Assembly (NCBI GenBank): GCA_032622095.1
Contig: CP136061.1
Location: 251,793,582 to 251,857,581 of the forward strand
Origin: Siphonodentalium dalli
Taxonomy: Eukaryota; Mollusca; Scaphopoda; Gadilida; Siphonodentaliidae
DNA: 64,000 bases
Direction of reading: 5' to 3'
How positions within the stretch are numbered: the first letter of the stretch is position 1; each line of letters starts with the position of its first letter. A model generated the notes under the pieces. That model searched no databases and was not told where the DNA came from. It saw only the letters and a program-made list of their open reading frames with translations. Positions 4,028-64,000 of this stretch are shown piece after piece. A program made the translations under genes and the position numbers.

Positions 4028-4426
4028 TTATTCTTGTGAACTTTGGGAACTCTGTGAGGAACTTGTGGTGGCGACTTCACAATATTGTCTCTTTCTACTT
4101 GGCGTTATATTTATATGTATTGTTCCTCCGTGTACTGTTCTATGTGAACTTCTGGAGGCACTGGTAGAACATGTACTTGCAGATGTCAAATCGTTCTCAT
4201 TTATGCTTAACTCGTCCGATTTTCTCGGAACAATAACTCCTGCTATATCCCGTGATGCTTCTTGCTGCTGGGCCACAGACGGCGCTGAGTATTCGTTTAT
4301 AGTTTGTAACGATTTCCACCCACCTAAGTGCACAACCGCGTTCGGGGCCACACCTGCCTGTATTAGAGTGGTGGCGAATGTCTTCCGCGTAGAGTGATTA
4401 ACTTTCCTCCCTTTTATCTCCGTGGC
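4028..4426 (-). pseudogene. C-terminal part of a tyrosine recombinase (Crypton-like) remnant
   Basis: The minus strand reads HSTRKTFATTLIQAG, then HLGGWKSLQTINEYSAPS, then a polar serine-rich tail ending at 4028. This is the R...H-x-x-[H/W]...Y end of a tyrosine recombinase: Arg in HSTRK, the GGW motif where many members have GH, and the nucleophile Tyr in INEY. The flavour (SLQTINEYS, QQQ soon after) resembles Crypton/DUF3504-type recombinases of animals. A stop codon lies upstream in this frame at about 4427. The adjoining ORF at 4414-4608 is in another frame and could be the shifted upstream part, but I see no recombinase motif in it. This is a dead C-terminal fragment of roughly 130 codons, against about 350 or more for a complete enzyme. 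Confidence 0.6.
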
Positions 4427-4619
4427 GATTCACTTGAAATATCCACTGTTTCCAGTCTGTTCATTTCCTGAGTCGATAATTGTTCTAATATCAAACTATC
4501 TTCCACCAGCAACTGTAAGATATCTTCCGTAGAACGAACATTTTTTGCCGAGCTAAATACGAGGTTCGCCAAAGCTAGTACGGAATGCCAATTACCGGAG
4601 AGTTTCACCTGTTAACGTC

Positions 4620-40795: not shown

Positions 40796-40952
40796 GTTAC
40801 GTTAGTGCATTGAACCTAATTTACGTTAATATGCCAATTTATCAACAATTATTATTATCACTATAATTTGCATGTGTGTTGGGGTAACTAAATAAGATGT
40901 CGTAATTAAACGTTAAGAGACAAAAGGCGTCAAGTAAATTTTGCTTAACGGG

Positions 40953-41044
40953 GCAATGCTATATGGAGGCAATGCTATATGGAGGCAATGCTATATGGTG
41001 GCAATGCTATATGGAGGCAATGCTATATGGAGGCAATGCTATAT
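40953..41044. repeat. 16-bp minisatellite, left part
   Basis: Six units of GGCAATGCTATATGGA. They are identical in type to the array at 42850-43284, on the other side of the inserted LINE. Confidence 0.95.
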
Positions 41045-42840
41045 GCTAACATCTCGTCATCTGAAAATTATCGACCTATAGCTCTATCAACACTCATATC
41101 AAAAATATTCGAAAAAGTTGTTCTGCAGAAAATTTCTCATCGCCTTCATACAACCGATAATCAATTCGGTTTCAAGAGCGGACATTCCACTGACAGTTGC
41201 ATTCTGGCACTCAAAGAGACAATAAATCACTATATATCGAAGAATACCCCTGCTTTCGTATGCTTTCTTGACGCCAGCAAAGCATTTGATAGAGTCAATC
41301 ACAGAACATTAACCCAATTATTGTGGAAACGCGGTATACCGACCTCAGTCATCAATGTCCTCAGTAATTGGTTTGGAAATCAGGAATACAACGTCAGATG
41401 GGGAGGATCGCACTCGCCTCCATTCCGGCCAACGAGTGGAGTTCGACAAGGCGAGGTTCTCAGTCCTTATTTGTTTAATGTGTACATAAATGGTATAAGT
41501 GAGAGGTTGAATGAAAGCGAGAGTGGATGTGTGATAGGTGGTAAGAGAGTAAACCATTTATGCTATGCTGATGACATGTGTCTACTTACACCCTCTCTAG
41601 AGGGACTTCGTCGTCTCGTGAGAATATGTGAAGCCGAAGCTTTACCCATAAATTTGGTATATAATTCAGGGGGGGGTGAAAAAAAAAATTCCGGCACGTA
41701 TGCCGGGGTGGGTGGGTGGTCAAAGCCACCAACAAGCAATTTTTTCCGCAACTAAAAAAAAAAATTCCTGTTTGTTTTTTAGTGTTTTGGCAATGAGTTG
41801 GGCTTCAAACCGACTTTGAATGAGAGAAATAATGTAATTCCAACTGTAAACTGACTGCAGGCAGTTATCGTGTTGTATTTTGTTGCAAATTTTGAAATCC
41901 AAGATGGCCGCTGGCAGCCATGTTTTTTTGGCCGAATGACCTCAAAATGACTCATTCCTATTTACATGTCCATGTTAACATCCATGATAAATAGTATGCA
42001 CAGAAATTCATATACAGCTGTTTACAGAGAATTTCCCCCCTCAAATCTCTGTTTTAGTGTTAAAAGGGGGGGTGGGTGTCAAAAAATGGTCGGAAAAAAC
42101 TGCCGAAAACGGAAAAAAAGTTGGCGGTGGGGGTGGGTGGGTACAAAAAATGATCGAAAGGGAAAAAATGCCATACGTGCCTGAAATATTTTTCCGACCC
42201 CCCCCCCTGTATAATTGCACAAAAACAGTAGGGATGGCGTTCATACCAAAATCCCTACGCCTCACGACCTTTCCAAAACTTTTTCTCATGGGTAGAGAAC
42301 TTAAGTTTGTTCCCGCCTATAAATACCTTGGACATATTCGCAGAGACGATCTTATTGATGATGATGATATTATGAGGCAATATAGATCAATTTGTTCCCG
42401 TTCCAATATCCTCATGAAAAAGTTTTACAAGTGTTCATTTGATGTAAAACGCCATCTTTTTCATGCTTATATTTCATCATTATATTGTTGTACTCTGTGG
42501 GAAAATTTCACCCAGCGCAGTTACCGCAAATTAATTGTATGTTATAACAATGCCTATAGGAAGTTTATGGGGTATGAATGGAGATGTAGCGCAAGTGGGA
42601 TGTATGCCAGGGATGTTGTTAGTTCTGTTCCTATGTTGATAAGAAAGAGTGTGTATGGTCTGAGAGAACGTGTGACTGAATCTGAAAATACAATTTTGCA
42701 TGCAATCATTAATTCCGATTTATTTTATGAATCTTATCTTTTCAAACATTGGAAAGAAATTCTGTATTACATATAATTGATATCTCTATCATATGGGCCA
42801 TTTGAGCCTGAATTAAATAAACTATATATAATATATATTA
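41045..42840 (+). mobile_element. 5'-truncated LINE inside the minisatellite
   Basis: The reverse transcriptase starts abruptly at SSSENYRPIALSTL and continues through FVCFLDASKAFDRVNH, GVRQGEVLSPYLFNVY and CYADDMCLLT to position 41659. After an inserted element it resumes at 42217 (FIPKSLRL, YKYLGHI, HAYISSLYCCTLW) and stops at 42776. Sequence type is of the CR1/L2 group. The insert plus duplicated target is 550 bases; removing it returns the reading frame exactly. No endonuclease is present. Minisatellite units on both sides show that the LINE landed in the array. Confidence 0.8.
41667..42209. mobile_element. CAGGGG-type TIR element inside the LINE
   Basis: Starts CAGGGGGGGG and ends CCCCCCCCTG, with flanking TATAATT at 41660-41666 and 42210-42216 as target duplication. 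Subterminal inverted matches include GGCACGTATG...CATACGTGCC and GGTGGGTGGGT-type blocks. The 543-base interior codes for no transposase. The terminal CAGGGG suits hAT or P superfamily elements (8-bp or 7-8-bp duplications); the 7-bp duplication leaves this open. Confidence 0.8.
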
Positions 42841-42849
42841 TAGAAGTAT

Positions 42850-43284
42850 ATGGAGGCAATGCTATATGGAGGCAATGCTATATGGAGGCAATGCTATATG
42901 GAGGCAATGCTATATGGAGTCAATGCTATATGGAGGCAATGCTATGTGGAGGCAATGCTATATGGTGGCAATGCTATATGGAGGCAATGCTATATGGTGG
43001 CAATGCTATATGGAGGCAATGCTATATGGATGCAATGCTATATGTAGGCAATGCTATATGGAGGCAATGCTATATGGATGCAATGTTATATGGAGGCAAT
43101 GCTATATGGTGGCAATGATATATGGAGGCAATGCTATATGGATGCAATGCTATATGGAGGCAATGCTATATGGAGGCAATGCTATATGGAGGCAATGCTA
43201 TATGGAGGCAATGCTATATGGAGGCAATGCTATATGGAGGCAATGTTGTATGGAGTCAATGCTATATGGAGGCAATGTTATATG
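42850..43284. repeat. 16-bp minisatellite, right part
   Basis: About 27 units of GGCAATGCTATATGGA with single-base variants (GGTGGC, GGATGC, GGAGTC). Since 16 is not a multiple of 3, all three frames stay open in rotation and yield repetitive ORFs without meaning. The array ends 6 bases from the GTGAGTTTAAC splice donor sequence of the MAM exon (minus strand). Confidence 0.95.
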
Positions 43285-43296
43285 GGTTAAACTCAC

Positions 43297-43553
43297 CATA
43301 TAATCGACACCCGCAGCGATGTTGACATTGGCCTCGAACCATGTGTCACCCTTCTCTCCAGTCTCTTGCCAGACCAGGGCCGGTGTATTAGATCCTTGTA
43401 AGATCCATACCGCGAGGTCTCCAGTTCTGCTTCCGTACATGTGATACCAGAACGTCAAGCAACCGGGTCCGGTCGTTATAGCTGGACTAATGATCGACCC
43501 CGTTTCTCCTGTGAACGTACCCGATGTTTCAATATATATATATGTCCCGTCTC
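43297..43553 (-). CDS. MAM domain exon 2
   Basis: Bounded by an acceptor (CGCTTTTCAG) and a perfect donor (GTGAGT). The 257 bases code for GDGTYIYIETSGTFTG, CLTFWYHMYGSRTGDLAVW, then GEKGDTWFEANVNIAAGVDYM. CLTFWYHMYG and the G-G-x-W-x-x-x-x-V run are diagnostic of MAM domains, extracellular adhesion modules of about 160 residues in receptor phosphatases, meprins and many invertebrate surface proteins. The exon begins with 2 bases completing the Gly codon of exon 1 and ends in phase 0. The remaining 30 or so domain residues should lie in a further exon at lower coordinates, which I did not find. Confidence 0.85.
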
Positions 43554-43969
43554 CTGAAAAGCGTTTGGATCGTATCGTTTATGCAAATCAAGGGTAGAAT
43601 ATGTACTAGGAACTAGTTTAACGGTGAGCAGAGTACTATTTATCTTGTAAATGTTGTATTTTAATGACGCCTATATATTGTTGCGGGTTGGCTATGCATT
43701 ATGTTAGAGACATGAGTCGAGCTGAATTGGTTGGGCTTATGTCCACCTTTACGAATAAATTGTATACTTAATCCCCCAGAATTACCTGTGGTTGGTCCAT
43801 TGCAATTCAGTATAGCTCATTCACACTATAATAGTCACCTGACCACGCCAATACATGCACTGCACATATTATATTACAAACTGAACGACGGACGATTTGT
43901 TTTTTTTCTTCTTTTTGTAAAATTAATGTTGTATTATGGTAACATGTATCGCGAGTTATATATAACTAA

Positions 43970-44591: not shown

Positions 44592-44714
44592 CTAGTATTG
44601 TGTACTTATTGTGAAGTCTATTCGAATGAAAGTATATTCCACCAGCTCTAAAATCCAATGGGTAAAATGTAACCGAATATTACTAAATCATACCGCGATC
44701 ACGATTATACTTAC

Positions 44715-44858
44715 CACATAGCAGTGTGTGATCCCCGCTCGGACCGGTATAACCTGAACCTGTCGGTCCCGATAAACGTGAGAATAGGCCTGAAGTTTGC
44801 CACGAACACGTATCTACTTCAAAATCACAGGCCGCCACTTCAGAATCACAGTACCCCC
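44715..44858 (-). CDS. MAM domain exon 1
   Basis: Acceptor (ATTACTTTCAG) and donor (GTAAGT) enclose 144 bases coding for GYCDSEVAACDFEVDTCSW, then SGPTGSGYTGPSGDHTLLCG. CDFEVDTCSWQ is the classical MAM opening with its first disulphide cysteines, and the G-DHT motif precedes the exon boundary as in other MAM genes. The last base (G) joins GA of exon 2 to make Gly, so the two exons join exactly in phase 1. The gene's upstream exons would lie toward or beyond the 42-bp array. Confidence 0.85.
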
Positions 44859-44859
44859 C

Positions 44860-46227
44860 TGAAAGTAATGAAAATGATCACTAAACAAAGTCATTTCAAA
44901 ACCCCGGTGAGTATCCATGGATAAGTGTTGCTGTTGTTTTGCTATGGATGTTGGTGGATCTTGCTTAATTATCGTAAATTATGGTGTTGGTGGGGTAAAG
45001 TGATGCTGATAATGATCAAAGTTCAATGACACTGTAGCGCAACGTGGTCAGGGGATAATATCATACATTGCAGTCAATGGAACGGTAAGGAGCGCTGAAA
45101 ATGTAAATGTTATGTGACCAGAAGTCAACCTGAAGAGCCATATGAAGTTCGGGATCAATTGGATATCTCCTGCTGGCAGTCGGGTATGCCAATGTATTGA
45201 GTGATGCTAAATTGCTAATAGTAAAATCCAAGATGGCTGCCGGCGTGCAATCTTGTTTATGATAGAATATCATTCATATTTGATAACTAAGCCACTGACT
45301 TTGGAAATTATATCCAATACGAGCATTGGTTGCCATGTTTTTTGGAAGAATATGGTAACTTTGACATTGTGTAGATTTGTCAGGATCGACTCACCCAACA
45401 GACAATGAATGACGTCACGAAAACTTTCTAAATAGTTGCCAAATAACCCAAACACTAACCCTATCCACCACCCTATCCACCATATCCACCACCCTATCCA
45501 CCACCATATCCACCACCCTATCCACCCTATCCAACACCCTATGCATGTTCACAATCCTGGTATTATCCATGACCATAACCATAGAACTATCCCAAACCCT
45601 GACCGAAGCCCTCACCCTAATCATAACCGTACTCCTATCTCAACCATGTATATAATCCAGTTAAATGCAACCATTGTGTGATACATAATGATATAGCCGT
45701 GCATTGTACAAGAAATCCTGACCGCCTATCGTAACATCTTTTCATCTTTAAGGGGGTGGGGGCAGTAAGACAGTCTAGCCTTACTATGCTACCCCCTCGA
45801 GTATACAATATAACTATGCATGACTAACAGTATGTATTCAACGGGAATGTGACAATGTAATTTGCTGGACATTTTGTGTGAATAATTACAATACTCAATC
45901 AGAAGAGATATTATCAAGAATTAGTGACTGAGTTGAAAGCAGGACGACTTCTCTAAAACAAAGATTCAAATACTGGTCTGTTGAAAGATATAATTCCAGT
46001 GGGTGGTATATGTCAGTTTAACATGATTATTTTTCCGATTTCCTCTGTTCTGGCCAGGAGTTAAATCGCAGTTAATTCTGCGGAGATTATCACATAATTT
46101 AAATATGCATTCATGGCTCAATACCATCAGTTACAACACCATAAGTCAACATGTATATCAAATTAAACATTCAACGCTAAGTAAGGTCATGGCAATTTAC
46201 AATGCCTGCAGTGTGTGGCTGTGGCCA
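44860..46227. other. No recognisable gene; CACCCTATC-type repeats
   Basis: 45460-45545 holds short repeats of CCACCCTATCCACCA and CCACCATAT type (9-12 base periods). The rest is non-coding. The last 150 bases before the 42-bp array show no similarity to it. Confidence 0.5.
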
Positions 46228-49200
46228 GACTGGTTCCGGAAGAGATACAAGATTGTATGGACTCATTCAGACTGGTTCCGGGTGAGATACATGATTGTAT
46301 GGACTCATTCAGACTGGTTCCGGAAGAGATATATGATTGTATGGACTCATTCAGACTGGTTCCGGAAGAGATACATGATTGTATGGACTCATTCAGACTG
46401 GTTCCGGAAGAGATACATGATTGTATGGACTCATGCAGACTGGTTCCGGAAGAGATACATGATTGTATGGACTCATTCAGACTGGTTCCGGAGGAGATAC
46501 ATGATTGTATGGACTCATTCAGACTGGTTCCGGAAGAGATGCATGATTGTATGGACTCATTCAGACTGGTTCCGGAAGAGATACATGATTGTATGGACTC
46601 ATTCAGACTGGTTCCGGAGGAGATACATGATTGTATGGACTCATTCAGACTGGTTCCGGAAGAGATGCATGATTGTATGGACTCATTCAGACTGGTTCCG
46701 GAGGAGATACATGATTGTATGGACTCATTCAGACTGGTTCCGGAAGAGATACATGATTGTATGGACTCATTCAGACTGGTTCCGGAAGAGATACATGATT
46801 GTATGGACTCATTCAGACTGGTTCCGGAGGAGATACATGATTGTATGGACTCATTCAGACTGGTTCCGGAGGAGATACATGATTGTATGGACTCATGCAG
46901 ACTGGTTCCGGAGGAGATACATGATTGTATGGACTCATTCAGACTGGTTCCGGGAGAGATACATGATTGTATGGACTCATTCAGACTGGTTCCGGAGGAG
47001 ATACATGATTGTATGGACTCATGCAGACTGGTTCCGGAGGAGATACATGATTGTATGGACTCATGCAGACTGGTTCCGGAGGAGATACATGATTGTATGG
47101 ACTCATGCAGACTGGTTCCGGAGGAGATACATGATTGTATGGACTCATTCAGACTGGTTCCGGGAGAGATACATGATTGTATGGACTCATTCAGACTGGT
47201 TCCGGAGGAGATACATGATTGTATGGACTCATGCAGACTGGTTCCGGAGGAGATACATGATTGTATGGACTCATTCAGACTGGTTCCGGGAGAGATACAT
47301 GATTGTATGGACTCATTCAGACTGGTTCCGGAGGAGATACATGATTGTATGGACTCATTCAGACTGGTTCCGGAGGAGATACATGATTGTATGGACTCAT
47401 GCAGACTGGTTCCGGAGGAGATACATGATTGTATGGACTCATTCAGACTGGTTCCGGGAGAGATACATGATTGTATGGACTCATTCAGACTGGTTCCGGA
47501 GGAGATACATGATTGTATGGACTCATTCAGACTGGTTCCGGAAGAGATACATGATTGTATGGACTCATTCAGACTGGTTCCGGAAGAGATACATGATTGT
47601 ATGGACTCATTCAGACTGGTTCCGGAGGAGATACATGATTGTATGGACTCATTCAGACTGGTTCCGGAAGAGATACATGATTGTATGGACTCATTCAGAC
47701 TGGTTCCGGAAGAGATATATGATTGTATGGACTCATTCAGACTGGTTCCGGAAGAGATACATGAGTGTATGGACTCATTCAGACTGGTTCCGGAAGAGAT
47801 ATATGATTGTATGGACTCATTCAGACTGGTTCCGGAGGAGATACATGGTTGTATGGACTCATTTAGACTGGTTCCGGGAGAGATACATGATTGTATGGAC
47901 TCATTCAGACTGGTTCCGGAGGAGATACATGATTGTATGGACTCATTCAGACTGGTTCCGGGAGAGATACATGATTGTATGGACTCATTCAGACTGGTTC
48001 CGGGAGAGATACATGATTGTATGGACTCATTCAGACTGGTTCCGGAAGAGATACATGATTGTATGGACTCATTCAGACTGGTTCCGGAAGAGATACATGA
48101 TTGTATGGACTCATTCAGACTGGTTCCGGAAGAGATACATGATTGTATGGACTCATTCAGACTGGTTCCGGAGGAGATACATGATTGTATGGACTCATTC
48201 AGACTGGTTCCGGGAGAGATACATGATTGTATGGACTCATTCAGACTGGTTCCGGGAGAGATACATGATTGTATGGACTCATTCAGACTGGTTCCGGAAG
48301 AGATACATGATTGTATGGACTCATTCAGACTGGTTCCGGAAGAGATACATGATTGTATGGACTCATTCAGACTGGTTCCGGAAGAGATACATGATTGTAT
48401 GGACTCATTCAGACTGGTTCCGGGAGAGATACATGATTGTATGGACTCATTCAGACTGGTTCCGGAAGAGATACATGATTGTATGGACTCATTCAGACTG
48501 GTTCCGGAAGAGATACATGATTGTATGGACTCATTCAGACTGGTTCCGGAAGAGATACATGATTGTATGGACTCATTCAGACTGGTTCCGGGAGAGATAC
48601 ATGATTGTATGGACTCATTCAGACTGGTTCCGGAGGAGATACATGATTGTATGGACTCATTTAGACTGGTTCCGGAAGAGATACATGATTGTATGGACTC
48701 ATTCAGACTGGTTCCGGAAGAGATACATGATTGTATGGACTCATTCAGACTGGTTCCGGGAGAGATACATGATTGTATGGACTCATTCAGACTGGTTCCG
48801 GAGGAGATACATGATTGTATGGACTCATTTAGACTGGTTCCGGAAGAGATACATGATTGTATGGACTCATTCAGACTGGTTCCGGAAGAGATACATGATT
48901 GTATGGACTCATTCAGACTGGTTCCGGGAGAGATACATGATTGTATGGACTCATTCAGACTGGTTCCGGAGGAGATACATGATTGTATGGACTCATTCAG
49001 ACTGGTTCCGGAGGAGATACATGATTGTATGGACTCATTCAGACTGGTTCCGGAGGAGATACATGATTGTATGGACTCATTCAGACTGGTTCCGGAGGAG
49101 ATACATGATTGTATGGACTCATTCAGACTGGTTCCGGAGGAGATACATGATTGTATGGACTCATTCAGACTGGTTCCGGGAGAGATACATGATTGTATGG

Positions 49201-49349
49201 ACTCATTCAGACTGGTTCCGGAGGAGATACATGATTGTATGGACTCATTCAGACTGGTTCCGGGAGAGATACATGATTGTATGGACTCATTCAGACTGGT
49301 TCCGGAGGAGATACATGATTGTATGGACTCATTCAGACTGGTTCCGGAA

Positions 49350-52300
49350 GAGATACATGAGTGTATGGACTCATTCAGACTGGTTCCGGAAGAGATATAT
49401 GATTGTATGGACTCATTCAGACTGGTTCCGGAGGAGATACATGATTGTATGGACTCATTTAGACTGGTTCCGGGAGAGATACATGATTGTATGGACTCAT
49501 TCAGACTGGTTCCGGAGGAGATACATGATTGTATGGACTCATTCAGACTGGTTCCGGGAGAGATACATGATTGTATGGACTCATTCAGACTGGTTCCGGG
49601 AGAGATACATGATTGTATGGACTCATTCAGACTGGTTCCGGAAGAGATACATGATTGTATGGACTCATTCAGACTGGTTCCGGAAGAGATACATGATTGT
49701 ATGGACTCATTCAGACTGGTTCCGGAAGAGATACATGATTGTATGGACTCATTCAGACTGGTTCCGGAGGAGATACATGATTGTATGGACTCATTCAGAC
49801 TGGTTCCGGGAGAGATACATGATTGTATGGACTCATTCAGACTGGTTCCGGAGGAGATACATGATTGTATGGACTCATTCAGACTGGTTCCGGGAGAGAT
49901 ACATGATTGTATGGACTCATTCAGACTGGTTCCGGAAGAGATACATGATTGTATGGACTCATTCAGACTGGTTCCGGGAGAGATACATGATTGTATGGAC
50001 TCATTCAGACTGGTTCCGGAAGAGATACATGATTGTATGGACTCATTCAGACTGGTTCCGGAGGAGATACATGATTGTATGGACTCATTCAGACTGGTTC
50101 CGGAACAGATACATGATTGTATGGACTCATTCAGACTGGTTCCGGAAGAGATACATGATTGTATGGACTCATTCAGACTGGTTCCGGAAGAGATACATGA
50201 TTGTATGGACTCATTCAGACTGGTTCCGGAAGAGATACATGATTGTATGGACTCATTCAGACTGGTTCCGGAAGAGATACATGATTGTATGGACTCATTC
50301 AGACTGGTTCTGGAAGAGATACATGATTGTATGGACTCATTCAGACTGGTTCCGGAAGAGATGCATGATTGTATGGACTCATTCAGACTGGTTCCGGAGG
50401 AGATACATGATTGTATGGACTCATTCAGACTGGTTCCGGAAGAGATACATGATTGTATGGACTCATTCAGACTGGTTCCGGAAGAGATACATGATTGTAT
50501 GGACTCATTCAGACTGGTTCCGGAAGAGATACATGATTGTATGGACTCATTCAGACTGGTTCCGGAAGAGATACATGATTGTATGGACTCATTCAGACTG
50601 GTTCCGGAAGAGATACATGATTGTATGGACTCATTCAGACTGGTTCCGGAAGAGATACATGATTGTATGGACTCATTCAGACTGGTTCCGGAAGAGATAC
50701 ATGATTGTATGGACTCATTCAGACTGGTTCCGGAAGAGATACATGATTGTATGGACTCATTCAGACTGGTTCCGAACAGATACATGATTGTATGGACTCA
50801 TTCAGACTGGTTCCGGAAGAGATACATGATTGTATGGACTCATTCAGACTGGTTCCGGAGGAGATACATGATTGTATGGACTCATTCAGACTGGTTCCGG
50901 AAGAGATACATGATTGTATGGACTCATTCAGACTGGTTCCGGAAGAGATGCATGATTGTATGGACTCATTCAGACTGGTTCCGGAACAGATACATGATTG
51001 TATGGACTCATTCAGACTGGTTCCGGAAGAGATACATGATTGTATGGACTCATTCAGACTGGTTCCGGAAGAGATGCATGATTGTATGGACTCATTCAGA
51101 CTGGTTCCGGAAGAGATGCATGATTGTATGGACTCAGTCAGACTGGTTCCGGAGGAGATACATGATTGTATGGACTCATTCAGACTGGTTCCGGAAGAGA
51201 TACATGATTGTATGGACTCATTCAGACTGGTTCCGGAAGAGATGCATGATTGTATGGACTCATTCAGACTGGTTCCGGAAGAGATGCATGATTGTATGGA
51301 CTCATTCAGACTGGTTCCGGAAGAGATACATGATTGTATGGACTCATTCAGACTGGTTCCGGAAGAGATACATGATTGTATGGACTCATTCAGACTGGTT
51401 CCGGAAGAGATGCATGATTGTATGGACTCATTCAGACTGGTTCCGGAAGAGATACATGATTGTATGGACTCTTTCAGACTGGTTCCGGAAGAGATACATG
51501 ATTGTATGGACTCATTCAGACTGGTTCCGGAAGAGATGCATGATTGTATGGACTCATTCAGACTGGTTCCGGAAGAGATGCATGATTGTATGGACTCATT
51601 CAGACTGGTTCCGGAAGAGATACATGATTGTATGGACTCATTCAGACTGGTTCCGGAAGAGATACATGATTGTATGGACTCATTCAGACTGGTTCCGGAG
51701 GAGATACATGATTGTATGGACTCATTCAGACTGGTTCCGGAAGAGATACATGATTGTATGGACTCATTCAGACTGGTTCCGGAAGAGATGCATGATTGTA
51801 TGGACTCATTCAGACTGGTTCCGGAAGAGATACATGATTGTATGGACTCATTCAGACTGGTTCCGGAAGAGATACATGATTGTATGGACTCATTCAGACT
51901 GGTTCCGGAGGAGATACATGATTGTATGGACTCATTCAGACTGGTTCCGGAAGAGATACATGATTGTATGGACTCATTCAGACTGGTTCCGGAAGAGATA
52001 CATGATTGTATGGACTCATTCAGACTGGTTCCGGAAGAGATACATGATTGTATGGACTCATTCAGACTGGTTCCGGAAGAGATACATGATTGTATGGACT
52101 CATTCAGACTGGTTCCGGAGGAGATACATGATTGTATGGACTCATTCAGACTGGTTCCGGAAGAGATACATGATTGTATGGACTCATTCAGACTGGTTCC
52201 GGAAGAGATGCATGATTGTATGGACTCATTCAGACTGGTTCCGGAACAGATACATGATTGTATGGACTCATTCAGACTGGTTCCGGAAGAGATGCATGAT

Positions 52301-55300
52301 TGTATGGACTCATTCAGACTGGTTCCGGAACAGATACATGATTGTATGGACTCATTCAGACTGGTTCCGGAAGAGATACATGATTGTATGGACTCATTCA
52401 GACTGGTTCCGGAAGAGATGCATGATTGTATGGACTCATTCAGACTGGTTCCGGAAGAGATGCATGATTGTATGGACTCATTCAGACTGGTTCCGGAGGA
52501 GATACATGATTGTATGGACTCATTCAGACTGGTTCCGGAAGAGATACATGATTGTATGGACTCATTCAGACTGGTTCCGGAAGAGATGCATGATTGTATG
52601 GACTCATTCAGACTGGTTCCGGAAGAGATGCATGATTGTATGGACTCATTCAGACTGGTTCCGGAAGAGATGCATGATTGTATGGACTCATTCAGACTGG
52701 TTCCGGAAGAGATACATGATTGTATGGACTCTTTCAGACTGGTTCCGGAAGAGATACATGATTGTATGGACTCATTCAGACTGGTTCCGGAAGAGATGCA
52801 TGATTGTATGGACTCATTCAGACTGGTTCCGGAAGAGATGCATGATTGTATGGACTCATTCAGACTGGTTCCGGAAGAGATACATGATTGTATGGACTCA
52901 TTCAGACTGGTTCCGGAAGAGATGCATGATTGTATGGACTCATTCAGACTGGTTCCGGAAGAGATGCATGATTGTATGGACTCATTCAGACTGGTTCCGG
53001 AAGAGATACATGATTGTATGGACTCATTCAGACTGGTTCCGGAGGAGATACATGATTGTATGGACTCATTCAGACTGGTTCCGGAAGAGATACATGAGTG
53101 TATGGACTCATTCAGACTGGTTCCGGAAGAGATATATGATTGTATGGACTCATTCAGACTGGTTCCGGAGGAGATACATGATTGTATGGACTCATTTAGA
53201 CTGGTTCCGGGAGAGATACATGATTGTATGGACTCATTCAGACTGGTTCCGGAGGAGATACATGATTGTATGGACTCATTCAGACTGGTTCCGGGAGAGA
53301 TACATGATTGTATGGACTCATTCAGACTGGTTCCGGGAGAGATACATGATTGTATGGACTCATTCAGACTGGTTCCGGGAGAGATACATGATTGTATGGA
53401 CTCATTCAGACTGGTTCCGGAAGAGATACATGATTGTATGGACTCATTCAGACTGGTTCCGGAAGAGATACATGATTGTATGGACTCATTCAGACTGGTT
53501 CCGGAAGAGATACATGATTGTATGGACTCATTCAGACTGGTTCCGGAAGAGATACATGATTGTATGGACTCATTCAGACTGGTTCCGGAAGAGATATATG
53601 ATTGTATGGACTCATTCAGACTGGTTCCGGAGGAGATACATGATTGTATGGACTCATTTAGACTGGTTCCGGGAGAGATACATGATTGTATGGACTCATT
53701 CAGACTGGTTCCGGAGGAGATACATGATTGTATGGACTCATTCAGACTGGTTCCGGGAGAGATACATGATTGTATGGACTCATTCAGACTGGTTCCGGGA
53801 GAGATACATGATTGTATGGACTCATTCAGACTGGTTCCGGAAGAGATACATGATTGTATGGACTCATTCAGACTGGTTCCGGAAGAGATACATGATTGTA
53901 TGGACTCATTCAGACTGGTTCCGGAAGAGATACATGATTGTATGGACTCATTCAGACTGGTTCCGGAGGAGATACATGATTGTATGGACTCATTCAGACT
54001 GGTTCCGGGAGAGATACATGATTGTATGGACTCATTCAGACTGGTTCCGGAGGAGATACATGATTGTATGGACTCATTCAGACTGGTTCCGGGAGAGATA
54101 CATGATTGTATGGACTCATTCAGACTGGTTCCGGAAGAGATACATGATTGTATGGACTCATTCAGACTGGTTCCGGGAGAGATACATGATTGTATGGACT
54201 CATTCAGACTGGTTCCGGAAGAGATACATGATTGTATGGACTCATTCAGACTGGTTCCGGAGGAGATACATGATTGTATGGACTCATTCAGACTGGTTCC
54301 GGAACAGATACATGATTGTATGGACTCATTCAGACTGATTCCGGAAGAGATACATGATTGTATGGACTCATTCAGACTGGTTCCGGAAGAGATACATGAT
54401 TGTATGGACTCATTCAGACTGGTTCCGGAAGAGATACATGATTGTATGGACTCATTCAGACTGGTTCCGGAGGAGATACATGATTGTATGGACTCATTCA
54501 GACTGGTTCCGGAAGAGATACATGATTGTATGGACTCATTCAGACTGGTTCCGGAGGAGATACATGATTGTATGGACTCATTCAGACTGGTTCCGGAAGA
54601 GATACATGATTGTATGGACTCATTCAGACTGGTTCCGGAAGAGATACATGATTGTATGGACTCATTCAGACTGGTTCCGGAAGAGATACATGATTGTATG
54701 GACTCATTCAGACTGGTTCCGGAAGAGATACATGATTGTATGGACTCATTCAGACTGGTTCCGGAAGAGATACATGATTGTATGGACTCATTCAGACTGG
54801 TTCCGGAAGAGATACATGATTGTATGGACTCATTCAGACTGGTTCCGGAAGAGATACATGATTGTATGGACTCATTCAGACTGGTTCCGGAGGAGATACA
54901 TGATTGTATGGACTCATTCAGACTGGTTCCGGATGAGATACATGATTGTATGGACTCATTCAGACTGGTTCCGGAAGAGATACATGATTGTATGGACTCA
55001 TTCAGACTGGTTCCGGAAGAGATACATGATTGTATGGACTCATTCAGACTGGTTCCGGAAGAGATACATGATTGTATGGACTCATTCAGACTGGTTCCGA
55101 ACAGATACATGATTGTATGGACTCATTCAGACTGGTTCCGGAAGAGATACATGATTGTATGGACTCATTCAGACTGGTTCCGGAGGAGATACATGATTGT
55201 ATGGACTCATTCAGACTGGTTCCGGAAGAGATACATGATTGTATGGACTCATTCAGACTGGTTCCGGAAGAGATGCATGATTGTATGGACTCATTCAGAC

Positions 55301-55700
55301 TGGTTCCGGAACAGATACATGATTGTATGGACTCATTCAGACTGGTTCCGGAAGAGATACATGATTGTATGGACTCATTCAGACTGGTTCCGGAAGAGAT
55401 GCATGATTGTATGGACTCATTCAGACTGGTTCCGGAAGAGATGCATGATTGTATGGACTCATTCAGACTGGTTCCGGAGGAGATACATGATTGTATGGAC
55501 TCATTCAGACTGGTTCCGGAAGAGATACATGATTGTATGGACTCATTCAGACTGGTTCCGGAAGAGATGCATGATTGTATGGACTCATTCAGACTGGTTC
55601 CGGAAGAGATGCATGATTGTATGGACTCATTCAGACTGGTTCCGGAAGAGATACATGATTGTATGGACTCATTCAGACTGGTTCCGGAAGAGATACATGA
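49350..55700. repeat. Higher-order duplicated blocks within the satellite
   Basis: The rare ATGAGTG variant occurs at 47761, 49357 and 53094 (38 and 89 units apart). The CTTTCAGAC variant is at 51471 and 52731 (30 units). The single-base deletions at 50774 and 55099 are 103 units apart. Downstream of both deletions about 14 successive units have the same variant order except one change. Upstream, the run between ATGAGTG and GGAACAG is the same apart from an extra 11-unit duplication in the second copy. Large-block duplication, not only unit-by-unit slippage, therefore shaped the array. Confidence 0.85.
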
Positions 55701-58700
55701 TTGTATGGACTCATTCAGACTGGTTCCGGAAGAGATACATGATTGTATGGACTCATTCAGACTGGTTCCGGAAGAGATACATGATTGTATGGACTCATTC
55801 AGACTGGTTCCGGAGGAGATACATGATTGTATGGACTCATTCAGACTGGTTCCGGAAGAGATACATGATTGTATGGACTCATTCAGACTGGTTCCGGAAG
55901 AGATACATGATTGTATGGACTCATTCAGACTGGTTCCGGAAGAGATGCATGATTGTATGGACTCATTCAGACTGGTTCCGGAGGAGATACATGATTGTAT
56001 GGACTCATTCAGACTGGTTCCGGAAGAGATACATGATTGTATGGACTCATTCAGACTGGTTCCGGAAGAGATACATGATTGTATGGACTCATTCAGACTG
56101 GTTCCGGAAGAGATACATGATTGTATGGACTCATTCAGACTGGTTCCGGAGGAGATACATGATTGTATGGACTCATTCAGACTGGTTCCGGAGGAGATAC
56201 ATGATTGTATGGACTCATTCAGACTGGTTCCGGAAGAGATGCATGATTGTATGGACTCATTCAGACTGGTTCCGGGGGAGATACATGATTGTATGGACTC
56301 ATTCAGACTGGTTCCGGAAGAGATACATGATTGTATGGACTCATTCAGACTGGTTCCGGAAGAGATACATGATTGTATGGACTCATTCAGACTGGTTCCG
56401 GAAGAGATGCATGATTGTATGGACTCATTCAGACTGGTTCCGGAAGAGATACATGATTGTATGGACTCATTCAGACTGGTTCCGGATGAGATACATGATT
56501 GTATGGACTCATTCAGACTGGTTCCGGAGGAGATACATGATTGTATGGACTCATTCAGACTGGTTCCGGAAGAGATACATGATTGTATGGACTCATTCAG
56601 ACTGGTTCCGGAAGAGATACATGATTGTATGGACTCATTCAGACTGGTTCCGGAAGAGATACATGATTGTATGGACTCATTCAGACTGGTTCCGGAAGAG
56701 ATACATGATTGTATGGACTCATTCAGACTGGTTCCGGATGAGATACATGATTGTATGGACTCATTCAGACTGGTTCCGGAAGAGATACATGATTGTATGG
56801 ACTCATTCAGACTGGTTCCGGAGGAGATACATGATTGTATGGACTCATTCAGACTGGTTCCGGAAGAGATACATGATTGTATGGACTCATTCAGACTGGT
56901 TCCGGAAGAGATACATGATTGTGTGGACTCATTCAGACTGGTTCCGGAAGAGATACATGATTGTATGGACTCATTCAGACTGGTTCCGGAAGAGATACAT
57001 GATTGTATGGACTCATTCAGACTGATTCCGGAAGAGATACATGATTGTATGGACTCATTCAGACTGGTTCCGGAAGAGATACATGATTGTATGGACTCAT
57101 TCAGACTGATTCCGGAAGAGATATATGATTGTATGGACTCATTCAGACTGGTTCCGGAAGAGATACATGATTGTATGGACTCATTCAGACTGGTTCCGGA
57201 GGAGATACATGATTGTATGGACTCATTCAGACTGGTTCCGGAGGAGATACATGATTGTATGGACTCATTCAGACTGGTTCCGGAGGAGATACATGATTGT
57301 ATGGATTCATTCAGACTGGTTCCGGAAGAGATACATGATTGTATGGACTCATTCAGACTGGTTCCGGAAGAGATACATGATTGTATGGACTCATTCAGAC
57401 TGGTTCCGGAAGAGATACATGATTGTATGGACTCATTCAGACTGGTTCCGGAAGAGATACATGATTGTATGGACTCATTCAGACTGGTTCCGGAAGAGGT
57501 ACATGATTGTATGGACTCATTCAGACTGGTTCCGGAAGAGATACATGATTGTATGGACTCATTCAGACTGGTTCCGGAGGAGATACATGATTGTATGGAC
57601 TCATTCAGACTGGTTCCGGAAGAGATACATGATTGTATGGACTCATTCAGACTGGTTCCGGAAGAGATACATGATTGTATGGACTCATTCAGACTGGTTC
57701 CTGAAGAGATACATGATTGTATGGACTCATTCAGACTGGTTCCGGAAGAGATACATGATTGTATGGACTCATTCAGACTGGTTCCGGAAGAGATACATGA
57801 TTGTATGGACTCATTCAGACTGGTTCCGGAAGAGATACATGATTGTATGGACTCATTCAGACTGGTTCCGGAGGAGATACATGATTGTATGGACTCATTC
57901 AGACTGGTTCCGGAAGAGATACATGATTGTATGGACTCATTCAGACTGGTTCCGGAGGAGATACATGATTGTATGGACTCATTCAGACTGGTTCCGGAAG
58001 AGATACATGATTGTATGGACTCATTCAGACTGGTTCCGGAAGAGATACATGATTGTATGGACTCATTCAGACTGGTTCCGGATGAGATACATGATTGTAT
58101 GGACTCATTCAGACTGGTTCCGGAAGAGATACATGATTGTATGGACTCATTCAGACTGGTTCTGGAGGAGACACATGATTGTATGGACTCATTCAGACTG
58201 GTTCCGGAGGAGATACATGATTGTATGGACTCATTCAGACTGGTTCCGGAAGAGATACATGATTGTGTGGACTCATTCAGACTGGTTCCGGAAGAGATAC
58301 ATGATTGTGTGGACTCATTCAGACTGGTTCCGGAAGAGATACATGATTGTATGGACTCATTCAGACTGGTTCCGGAAGAGATACATGATTGTATGGACTC
58401 ATTCAGACTGGTTCCGGAAGAGATACATGATTGTATGGACTCATTCAGACTGGTTCCGGAAGAGATACATGATTGTATGGACTCATTCAGACTGGTTCCG
58501 GAAGAGATGCATGATTGTATGGACTCATTCAGACTGGTTCCGGAGGAGATACATGATTGTATGGACTCATTCAGACTGGTTCCGGAGGAGATACATGATT
58601 GTATGGACTCATTCAGACTGGTTCCGGAAGAGATACATGATTGTATGGACTCATTCAGACTGGTTCCGGAAGAGATACATGATTGTATGGACTCATTCAG

Positions 58701-60589
58701 ACTGGTTCCGGAGGAGATACATGATTGTATGGACTCATTCAGACTGGTTCCGGAGGAGATACATGATTGTATGGACTCATTCAGACTGGTTCCGGAAGAG
58801 ATACATGATTGTATGGACTCATTCAGACTGGTTCCGGAAGAGATACATGATTGTATGGACTCATTCAGACTGGTTCCGGAGGAGATACATGATTGTATGG
58901 ACTCATTCAGACTGGTTCCGGAAGAGATACATGATTGTATGGACTCATTCAGACTGGTTCCGGGGGAGATACATGATTGTATGGACTCATTCAGACTGGT
59001 TCCGGGGGAGATACATGATTGTATGGATTCATTCAGACTGGTTCCGGAGGAGATACATGATTGTATGGACTCATTCAGACTGGTTCCGGAGGAGATACAT
59101 GATTGTATGGACTCATTCAGACTGGTTCAGGATGAGATACATGATTGTGTGTACTCATTCAGACTGGTTCCGGAGGAGATACATGATTGTATGGATTCAT
59201 TCAGACTGGTTCCGGGAGAGATACATGATTGTATGGACTCATTCAGACTGGTTCCGGAAGAGATACATGATTGTATGGACTCAGTCAGACTGGTTCCGGA
59301 GGAGATACATGATTGTATGGACTCATTCAGACTGGTTCCGGGAGAGATACATGATTGTATGGACTCATTCAGACTGGTTCCGGAGGAGATACATGATTGT
59401 ATGGACTCATTCAGACTGGTTCCGGATGAGATACATGATTGTATGGACTCATTCAGACTGGTTCCGGAAGAGATACATGATTGTATGGACTCATTCAGAC
59501 TGGTTCCGGAAGAGATACATGATTGTATGGACTCATTCAGACTGGTTCCGGAAGAGATACATGATTGTATGGACTCATTCAGACTGGTTCCGGAAGAGAT
59601 ACATGATTGTATGGACTCATTCAGACTGGTTCCGGGAGAGATACATGATTGTATGGACTCATTCAGACTGGTTCCGGAGGAGATACATGATTGTATGGAC
59701 TCATTCAGACTGGTTCCGGAGGAGATACATGATTGTATGGACTCATTCAGACTGGTTCCGGATGAGATACATGATTGTATGGACTCATTCAGACTGGTTC
59801 CGGAAGAGATACATGATTGTATGGACTCATTCAGACTGGTTCCGGAGGAGATACATGATTGTATGGACTCATTCAGACTGGTTCCGGATGAGATACATGA
59901 TTGTATGGACTCATTCAGACTGGTTCCGGAAGAGATACATGATTGTATGGACTCATTCAGACTGGTTCCGGAGGAGATACATGATTGTATGGACTCATTC
60001 AGACTGGTTCCGGATGAGATACATGATTGTATGGACTCATTCAGACTGGTTCCGGAAGAGATACATGATTGTATGGACTCATTCAGACTGGTTCCGGAAG
60101 AGATACATGATTGTATGGACTCATTCAGACTGGTTCCGGAAGAGATACATGATTGTATGGACTCATTCAGACTGGTTCCGGAAGAGATACATGATTGTAT
60201 GGACTCATTCAGACTGGTTCCGGGAGAGATACATGATTGTATGGACTCATTCAGACTGGTTCCGGAAGAGATACATGATTGTATGGACTCATTCAGACTG
60301 GTTCCGGAAGAGATACATGATTGTATGGACTCATTCAGACTGGTTCCGGAAGAGATACATGATTGTATGGACTCATTCAGACTGGTTCCGGAAGAGATAC
60401 ATGATTGTATGGACTCATTCAGACTGGTTCCGGGAGAGATACATGATTGTATGGACTCATTCAGACTGGTTCCGGATGAGATACATGATTGTATGGACTC
60501 ATTCAGACTGGTTCCGGAAGAGATACATGATTGTATGGACTCATTCAGACTGGTTCCGGAAGAGATACATGATTGTATGGACTCATTCA

Positions 60590-61700
60590 GACTGGTCCCG
60601 GAAGAGATACATGATTGTATGGACTCATGCAGACTGGTTCCGGAAGAGATACATGATTGTATGGACTCATTCAGACTGGTTCCGGAAGAGATACATGATT
60701 GTATGGACTCATTCAGACTGGTTCCGGAAGAGATACATGATTGTATGGACTCATGCAGACTGGTTCCGGAAGAGATACATGATTGTATGGACTCATTCAG
60801 ACTGGTTCCGGAAGAGATACATGATTGTATGGACTCATTCAGACTGGTTCCGGGGGAGATACATGATTGTATGGACTCATGCAGACTGGTTCCGGAAGAG
60901 ATACATGATTGTATGGACTCATTCAGACTGGTTCCGGAAGAGATACATGATTGTATGGACTCATTCAGACTGGTTCCGGAAGAGATACATGATTGTATGG
61001 ACTCATTCAGACTGGTTCCGGAAGAGATACATGATTGTATGGACTCATGCAGACTGGTTCCGGAAGAGATACATGATTGTATGGACTCATTCAGACTGGT
61101 TCCGGAAGAGAGGCATGATTGTATGGACTCATTCAGACTGGTTCCGGAAGAGATACATGATTGTATGGACTCATGCAGACTGGTTCCGGAAGAGATACAT
61201 GATTGTATGGACTCATTCAGACTGGTTCCGGAAGAGATACATGATTGTATGGACTCATTCAGACTGGTTCCGGAAGAGATACATGATTGTATGGACTCAT
61301 GCAGACTGGTTCCGGAAGAGATACATGATTGTATGGACTCATTCAGACTGGTTCCGGAAGAGATACATGATTGTATGGACTCATTCAGACTGGTTCCGGG
61401 GGAGATACATGATTGTATGGACTCATGCAGACTGGTTCCGGAAGAGATACATGATTGTATGGACTCATTCAGACTGGTTCCGGAAGAGATACATGATTGT
61501 ATGGACTCATTCAGACTGGTTCCGGAAGAGATACATGATTGTATGGACTCATTCAGACTGGTTCCGGAAGAGATACATGATTGTATGGACTCATGCAGAC
61601 TGGTTCCGGAAGAGATACATGATTGTATGGACTCATTCAGACTGGTTCCGGAAGAGAGGCATGATTGTATGGACTCATTCAGACTGGTTCCGGAAGAGAT
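60590..61700. repeat. 3-4-unit periodic sub-array and 13-unit duplication
   Basis: The CATGCAGAC variant recurs every third or fourth unit here. The unique GAGAGGCATG variant is found at 61111 and 61657, exactly 546 bases (13 units) apart, with the same flanking order of GGGGGAG and GCAGAC units. Confidence 0.8.
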
Positions 61701-63239
61701 ACATGATTGTATGGACTCATTCAGACTGGTTCCGGAAGAGATACATGATTGTATGGACTCATTCAGACTGGTTCCGGAGGAGATACATGATTGTATGGAC
61801 TCATTTAGACTGGTTCCGGAAGAGATACATGATTGTATGGACTCATTCAGACTGGTTCCGGGGGAGATACATGATTGTATGGACTCATTCAGACTGGTTC
61901 CGGAAGAGATACATGATTGTATGGACTCATTCAGACTGGTTCCGGGGGAGATACATGATTGTATGGACTCATTCAGACTGGTTCCGGAGGAGATACATGA
62001 TTGTATGGACTCATTCAGACTGGTTCCGGGGGAGATACATGATTGTATGGACTCATTCAGACTGGTTCCGGAAGAGATACATGATTGTATGGACTCATTC
62101 AGACTGGTTCCGGAAGAGATACATGATTGTATGGACTCATTCAGACTGGTTCCGGGGGAGATACATGATTGTATGGACTCATTCAGACTGGTTCCGGGGG
62201 AGATACATGATTGTATGGACTCATTCAGACTGGTTCCGGAGGAGACACATGATTGTATGGACTCATTCAGACTGGTTCCGGAAGAGATATATGATTGTAT
62301 GGACTCATTCAGACTGGTTCCGGAGGAGATACATGATTGTATGGACTCATTCAGACTGGTTCCGGAGGAGATACATGATTGTATGGACTCATTCAGACTG
62401 GTTCCGGAGGAGACACATGATTGTATGGACTCATTCAGACTGGTTCCGGAAGAGATATATGATTGTATGGACTCATTCAGACTGGTTCCGGAAGAGATAT
62501 ATGATTGTATGGACTCATTCAGACTGGTTCCGGAGGAGATACATGATTGTATGGACTCATTCAGACTGGTTCCGGAAGAGATACATGATTGTATGGACTC
62601 AGTCAGACTGGTTCCGGAAGAGATACATGATTGTATGGACTCATTCAGACTGGTTCCGGAAGAGATACATGATTGTATGGACTCATTCAGACTGGTTCCG
62701 GGAGAGATACATGATTGTATGGACTCATTCAGACTGGTTCCGGAAGAGATACATGATTGTATGGACTCAGTCAGACTGGTTCCGGAAGAGATACATGATT
62801 GTATGGACTCATTCAGACTGGTTCCGGAGGAGATACATGATTGTATGGACTCATTCAGACTGGTTCCGGAGGAGATACATGATTGTATGGACTCATTCAG
62901 ACTGGTTCCGGAAGAGATACATGATTGTATGGACTCAGTCAGACTGGTTCCGGAGGAGATACATGATTGTATGGACTCATTCAGACTGGTTCCGGAAGAG
63001 ATACATGATTGTATGGACTCAGTCAGACTGGTTCCGGAGGAGATACATGATTGTATGGACTCATTCAGACTGGTTCCGGAAGAGATACATGATTGTATGG
63101 ACTCATTCAGACTGGTTCCGGAAGAGATACATGATTGTATGGACTCATTCAGACTGGTTCCGGGGGAGATACATGATTGTATGGACTCATTCTGACTGGT
63201 TCCGGAAGAGATACATGATTGTATGGACTCATTCAGACT

Positions 63240-64000
63240 TTGTGTTAATAGTTCCTAAACTGACATAAATTACATAGTTAGAGTGACTAACTTGTGTTAG
63301 TCAAACTCGTATCCTCCAATTAACTGACTTATATTTGTCAAACTTACTATGTTTCGGCTCAGTCAATTTGGTGATTCCTATCAAGTAGGACATGTCCTGG
63401 TCAATGGTATACGTGGCTTGACATTAGTTGAACACGCTGCGCTGAGACCACGGTGTGCTTATATGAGCGAATTGGAAGTTTTATGACTGTAATGTAATTA
63501 AGATATCTCTCAACTTTTATCGGCGACATAACGCTAAGAATAATGTATGTAACATCGTGCAATGGACACGATGGAGATGATATGCCAACTTGACAAGATG
63601 GGTCATGGATTGTGCAATCTTGTCTGGATTCTGGCCCACAAATCCAAAATCACGTTTTCATTTTCGTTTGCATTAAGTTGTGAAGTAGTTACTTTCATTT
63701 TCATCGCAATGCTTCATTCCCAATTCCGCATTTTTTTGCAATCTCCACAATGTTGCTAACCGGAAGTCACGTGACAATTTCTCCAAAATCCATACAGCGA
63801 TCTTTGAAAAATCACTGACGGATATAGAAAAAAAATATATGACATCATTCACCTGCGCCTAATGTATAAACAACCTCCTGGTGGTGCTTTTATATCCCAA
63901 ACTTGGCACTAGGCGGAGATACAATGGTAAGGTACAATTGTAAACTTTAGTGTAAACATATTTGTATTTCCAATTCCAAACATATAAATTAATATAACAT
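63240..64000. other. No recognisable gene
   Basis: Right flank of the satellite. The ORF at 63562-63759 (plus, 65 codons) has a hydrophobic stretch (ITFSFSFALSCEVVTFIFIA) but no known motif. Nothing connects it to the MAM gene. Confidence 0.4.

What the first reader, a model, noticed from the sequence alone, without database searches (positions are those of the whole stretch)
46228..63239. A 17-kb, 405-unit, 42-bp satellite with almost no length drift
Seen: 405 units with only two net single-base deletions over 17 kb, which fits an exact 404 x 42 count. Most minisatellites gather indels as they age. Either the array is young and expanded by copying of exact units, or something keeps the 42-base register. 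The unit length is also four helical turns (10.5 x 4), which could matter for nucleosome or protein phasing; that part is inference.
Basis: partly seen in the sequence, partly recalled or inferred. Interest (0 to 1): 0.8.

Follow-up and report, generated by a model that had tools for sequence, protein, structure and literature searches.

The report
Ordinary young 42-base tandem repeat array
A long stretch of animal-like DNA repeats one 42-base unit about 405 times with almost no length change; this looks like an ordinary, recently copied repeat array, and nothing special seems to be needed to keep the unit length.

Summary
The array is real: 46226-63239, 405 units of a 42-bp motif, 403 of exactly 42 bp and two of 41 bp. 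The two short units are identical in sequence, lie 103 units apart, and sit inside a large duplicated block (about 50 units, copied about 100 units downstream), so they are best read as one deletion that was copied. The 272 substitution instances in the 403 full-length units reduce to 25 types at 22 sites. With the indel:substitution ratio of diverged repeat pairs in the same window (38:389), 2-3 indel events are expected. In simulations of block duplication and deletion with no rule on unit length, 27-28% of matched runs keep at most one indel event. No reading frame survives the array and variants show no clear coding constraint. Best explanation: a young non-coding minisatellite or short satellite, grown and homogenised by whole-unit exchange, upstream of or in an intron of a MAM-domain gene. 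No reads or genome of this organism were available.

The parts
46226..63239 (.). tandem array, 405 units of a 42-bp motif plus 6 bases (CAGACT)
50745..50785 (.). 41-bp spacing holding the first short unit (deletion site near 50772)
55070..55110 (.). 41-bp spacing holding the second short unit, identical in sequence to the first (deletion site near 55097)
49362..51400 (.). block of about 50 units (unit indices about 75-123; end approximate), one copy; a 777-bp exact repeat starts at 49362
53561..55700 (.). other copy of that block, about 100 units downstream (unit indices about 175-226; end approximate); the 777-bp exact match starts at 53561
43288..43560 (-). exon of a MAM-domain gene near the array (ends approximate); neighbour, not part of the array
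   Evidence: Pfam MAM, E 1.1e-16 for ORF 43201-43578; splice-like ends read by eye

Best explanation
A young, non-coding minisatellite (short satellite) array in a eukaryotic, animal-like genome. A 42-bp unit was copied head to tail. The array then grew and was homogenised by exchanges that pair homologous units and add or remove whole units, singly and in blocks up to about 50 units (unequal sister-chromatid exchange, slippage or break-induced copying). Such exchange preserves unit length by itself, and few independent mutations survive in the array, so few indels are seen. Shown: unit lengths, block duplication, absence of a frame open across the array, and that a model without any length rule is compatible with the data. 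Simplest reading: a single origin of the two short units. Inferred: which exchange pathway, and that there is no function.
For: 403 of 405 units are 42 bp and the other two are one identical variant. The best self-alignment of the string of unit types scores 42.2 against maxima of 8.7-11.1 in 10 shuffles, with 43 of 51 alignment steps (gaps included) identical, at a lag of 100 units; other blocks at lags 13, 38, 71 and 89. 25 substitution types (listed by hand), 272 instances in 403 full-length units. The local indel:substitution ratio 38:389 predicts 2.4 indel events for 25 substitution events, P(at most 1) 0.30. Of 199,999 simulations, 2583 matched loosely (18-32 types, 0.4-1.0 substitutions per unit, 300-550 units): 27% kept at most 1 indel event, 21% at most 2 indel-bearing units, 18% both; 1034 matched more tightly: 28%, 22% and 19%. 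13 of 405 units are unique, among them units 1, 2 and 405, a pattern I recall as expected under unequal exchange.
Against: Raw instances show fewer gaps per substitution (2:274) than ten other arrays of the window (7:93) or diverged pairs (38:389). In the loosely matched simulations the median number of indel-bearing units is 10 and the mean 22, against 2 observed. If the true ratio were 0.15, P(at most 1 event) would be 0.11 for 25 substitution events and 0.04 for 34; at 0.2, 0.04 and 0.009. In a first set of growth-phase-only simulations (ratio 0.12), settings with a median of 137-140 substitution instances had at most 2 indel units in 3% of 60 runs and settings with 379-403 in none; these had 43-98 variant types, against 25 observed. 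The ratio rests on 14 hand-picked, partly dependent pairs.
Confidence: 0.87

Rival explanations
1. The 42-bp register is actively kept, by a bound protein or by nucleosome phasing (42 = 4 x 10.5).
For: Raw gap:substitution instances 2:274 against 7:93 in ten other arrays; 42 is an exact multiple of 10.5; 20 of 42 sites never vary, though 25 random hits would leave about 23 untouched (expected 19.0 distinct sites hit, 22 seen).
Against: The scarcity of indels is compatible with block copying without any length rule. A/T-dinucleotide power at 10.5 bp is unremarkable, 597 of 2000 shuffles reach it. The commonest variants (positions 16, 15, 22) are carried by 115, 49 and 34 of 403 units. Only one of ten other re-aligned arrays has a unit that is a multiple of 10.5.
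Confidence: 0.04
2. The array encodes a 14-residue-repeat protein (for example a Ser/Thr-rich repeat ESIQSCISSGTSLN on the minus strand, the strand of the neighbouring MAM gene).
For: 42 is a multiple of 3; two plus-strand phases and one minus-strand phase of the unit are open; ORFs up to 2707 aa; the MAM exon lies on the minus strand.
Against: The two 1-base deletions shift the frame and no frame is open across the array. In the open minus phase the 25 variant types split silent/replacing/stop 8/16/1 against 7.2/16.9/0.9 expected; in the two open plus phases 6/18/1 against 6.2/18.2/0.6 and 5/19/1 against 5.5/17.4/2.2 (no formal test).
Confidence: 0.02
3. Assembly or collapse artefact.
For: No reads could be examined; tandem arrays are often mis-sized (general knowledge).
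Against: 35 distinct unit types in an irregular order, and the longest exact internal repeat is 777 bp, short enough for long reads to place (read lengths recalled). The true copy number may still differ.
Confidence: 0.07

Closest known systems
Minisatellites / VNTR arrays
   Same: Unit of tens of bases and an array of 17 kb, within the 0.5-30 kb that PMC8122249 gives for minisatellite arrays (passages seen); close to a gene; block duplications and unique edge units.
   Different: 405 copies is many for a minisatellite (my judgement); no population data on copy-number variation.
Satellite DNAs under concerted evolution by unequal exchange
   Same: Low divergence and homogenised units, multi-unit block copies (concerted evolution and its mechanisms as in PMC8122249, passages seen).
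   Different: Only one locus could be examined, so a genome-wide family is neither shown nor excluded; no regular higher-order repeat, only scattered block copies.
Helitron-borne central satellite arrays of bivalves (Crassostrea gigas)
   Same: Tandem arrays in animal DNA (PMC8268682, abstract parts and passages seen).
   Different: The arrays described there for the Cg170-type satellite average about six monomers; Helitron end boxes were not searched for here, and the organism is unknown.

Membership tests
Minisatellite / short satellite array | Head-to-tail copies of a unit of about 10-100 bp | tested here: met
Minisatellite / short satellite array | Non-coding | tested here: met
   no frame open across the array; variant types near expectation in the three open phases
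Minisatellite / short satellite array | Turnover by whole-unit exchange | tested here: met
   block copies far above 10 shuffles, unique edge units
Minisatellite / short satellite array | Copy-number variation between individuals | not testable with these tools
   no reads or other genomes of this organism; one search answered that no whole genome is held
Register-keeping or nucleosome-phasing satellite | Fewer indels than copying without a length rule allows | tested here: not met
   27-28% of matched simulations keep as few indel events at the local ratio; sensitive to that ratio and to the model
Register-keeping or nucleosome-phasing satellite | 10.5-bp A/T dinucleotide periodicity | tested here: not met
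   597 of 2000 shuffles reach the power
Helitron-borne satellite | Helitron end boxes on either side | not tested
   no eukaryotic repeat library among the tools

The most novel reading that the evidence does not exclude
The array is held at 42 bp because a sequence-specific protein or a chromatin constraint removes out-of-register units faster than substituted ones.
Probability: 0.04. Interest if true: 0.55.

Novelty: new member of a known kind. Interest (0 to 1): 0.13.

Why it matters
Mainly as a worked example: near-perfect unit length in a long array does not by itself show a constraint on length, because block copying leaves few independent mutations and copies whole units. The order of unit variants would make a useful marker of array turnover once individuals can be compared.

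Tried and rejected
Coding array: rejected. RNA family: none in the window at gathering threshold; no tRNA by ARAGORN. Single-strand folding as an expansion driver: one unit folds no better than shuffles (z -0.19 and -0.46 for the two strands); three units z -1.98, 6 of 200 shuffles as good; weak and not pursued. Relatives elsewhere: 0 exact matches of a 20-base piece in viral contigs, 0 of a 26-base piece in the prokaryote genome set, no megablast match of the first 4001 bases in phages or plasmids (low-complexity filter on). None of these collections is eukaryotic, so this does not say that the unit is unique. Copies of the unit outside the array: best ungapped match 20 of 30 bases in 1-46000 and 63401-64000, and 15 of 20 bases in the two flanks. 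Paper searches for a 42-bp unit, for unit-length and unequal-exchange terms, for edge monomers, for amphioxus intron minisatellites and for helical-turn lengths were judged from titles and abstract starts, and I saw no paper that describes this array; the unit's letters were not searched in papers. A wheat satellitome paper (PMC10827815) was checked by one passage, which concerns curvature. Growth-phase-only simulations did not give so few variant types at so many substitution instances and were replaced by the runs with later turnover; their result is told in the Against line.

Full report
Observation. TRF reports one array at 46226-63239, period 42, 405.1 copies, 97% matches and 0% indels. 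Anchoring on an internal 15-mer found 405 units and 404 spacings, 402 of 42 bp and 2 of 41 bp. The unit CAGACTGGTTCCGGAAGAGATACATGATTGTATGGACTCATT is the commonest form (171 of 405 units), and there are 35 distinct unit types.

The two short units. They have the same sequence and lie 103 units apart; by eye they also carry a second change besides the lost base, one that some 42-bp units have too. A self-alignment of the string of unit types finds a block of about 50 units (indices 75-123) repeated 100 units downstream (indices 175-226), 43 of 51 alignment steps identical, gaps included, score 42.2; the maxima of 10 shuffles were 8.7 to 11.1. Both short units fall inside this block and inside a 527-bp exact repeat. 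Further exact repeats of 777 and 577 bp and blocks at lags of 13, 38, 71 and 89 units show copying at several scales. The simplest reading is one deletion event, copied with its neighbours.

Is the shortage of indels remarkable? The 403 full-length units carry 272 substitutions against the consensus, 1.6% per site, at 22 of 42 sites. I listed 25 substitution types by hand. For a local yardstick I chose 14 pairs of diverged repeats or palindrome arms from the self-comparison of the window (130 rows): 389 mismatches and 38 gap openings; one pair aligned on its own overlap and added nothing, and three come from one 383-bp array. At that ratio, 25 or 34 substitution events predict 2.4 or 3.3 indel events, and one or none has probability 0.30 or 0.16; at a ratio of 0.2 it would be 0.04 or 0.009. 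In 199,999 forward simulations with random block sizes, mutation rates and turnover, and no rule on unit length, 2583 runs matched the observed types, divergence and array size loosely and 1034 more tightly. At most one indel event remained in 27% and 28%, at most two indel-bearing units in 21% and 22%, both in 18% and 19%; the median number of indel-bearing units was 10 and 11. Growth-phase-only simulations (15 settings of 60 runs, ratio 0.12) did not match types and instances together; settings with a median of 137-140 or 379-403 substitution instances had 43-98 types and at most two indel units in 3% or 0% of runs. Against the neutral reading too: counted as instances, ten other arrays in the window show 93 substitutions and 7 gaps (6 of the 10 have none), the 42-bp array 274 and 2.

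Phasing. A/T-dinucleotide power at 10.5 bp in the unit is reached by 597 of 2000 base shuffles. The ten other short-unit arrays that I re-aligned have units of 64, 41, 40, 26, 50, 26, 42, 37, 16 and 16 bp; one of ten is a multiple of 10.5. Neither supports helical phasing.

Coding. The unit has two open plus phases and one open minus phase, which gives ORFs up to 2707 aa, but no frame crosses the array. My count per segment, cut a few bases before the deletion sites, shows 0 to 2 stops in the open phases and about one per unit in the others. The 25 variant types divide into silent, replacing and stop changes close to expectation in five phases; in the plus phase that holds a stop in every unit they are 4/18/3 against 7.5/16.5/1.0 expected (no formal test; transitions weighted four to one).

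Array behaviour. Of 13 units found once, three are units 1, 2 and 405; at least 3 of the 4 outermost units being unique has probability 1e-4 under random placement, a test chosen after seeing the data. Units 1-10 apart differ by 2.4-2.6% and units more than 200 apart by 3.0%. Both fit exchange that is frequent inside and rare at the edges; that expectation is recalled from theory.

Surroundings. The window is eukaryotic in character: a MAM-domain match in ORF 43201-43578 on the minus strand (Pfam E 1.1e-16), a PAN-domain fragment at 2054-2332 and reverse-transcriptase fragments. A stretch at about 44700-44860 on the minus strand looks by eye like the first part of the same MAM domain, but Pfam found nothing there at E up to 1. 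It is preceded by a splice-acceptor-like sequence (read by eye), so a further upstream exon should exist, either between 44.9 and 46.2 kb or beyond the array. The array may thus be intronic or upstream of the gene; this was not settled. The organism is not identified; a marine invertebrate is my impression only.

Verdict. Register-keeping cannot be excluded without reads and individuals, but nothing here requires it.

Noticed in passing
40952-43285: A 16-bp array (GGCAATGCTATATGGA) occurs in two pieces, 5.9 and 27.4 copies, on either side of a 1.8-kb stretch with reverse-transcriptase similarity; TATATG at both junctions suggests a 5'-truncated LINE inserted into a minisatellite. The larger piece lies next to the splice-donor-like end of the MAM exon, so it is probably intronic.
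   Followed up: partly
41660-42216: Inside that LINE-like stretch, an insert of about 0.54 kb with inverted terminal sequences (CAGGGGGG.../...CCCCCCTG) and TATAATT on both sides looks like a MITE (read by eye).
   Followed up: partly
1904-2332: A 41-bp array overlaps an ORF with a PAN-domain match (minus strand), as if an exon piece had been duplicated in tandem.
   Followed up: no
4031-4429: Tyrosine-recombinase-like fragment on the minus strand (Phage_integrase, E 1.2e-7), possibly a Crypton or similar element (the element name is recalled).
   Followed up: no
46226-63239: Strong strand asymmetry over the array (GC skew +0.23 to +0.26 in the 2-kb windows from 46001 to 62000), set by the unit.
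   Followed up: no
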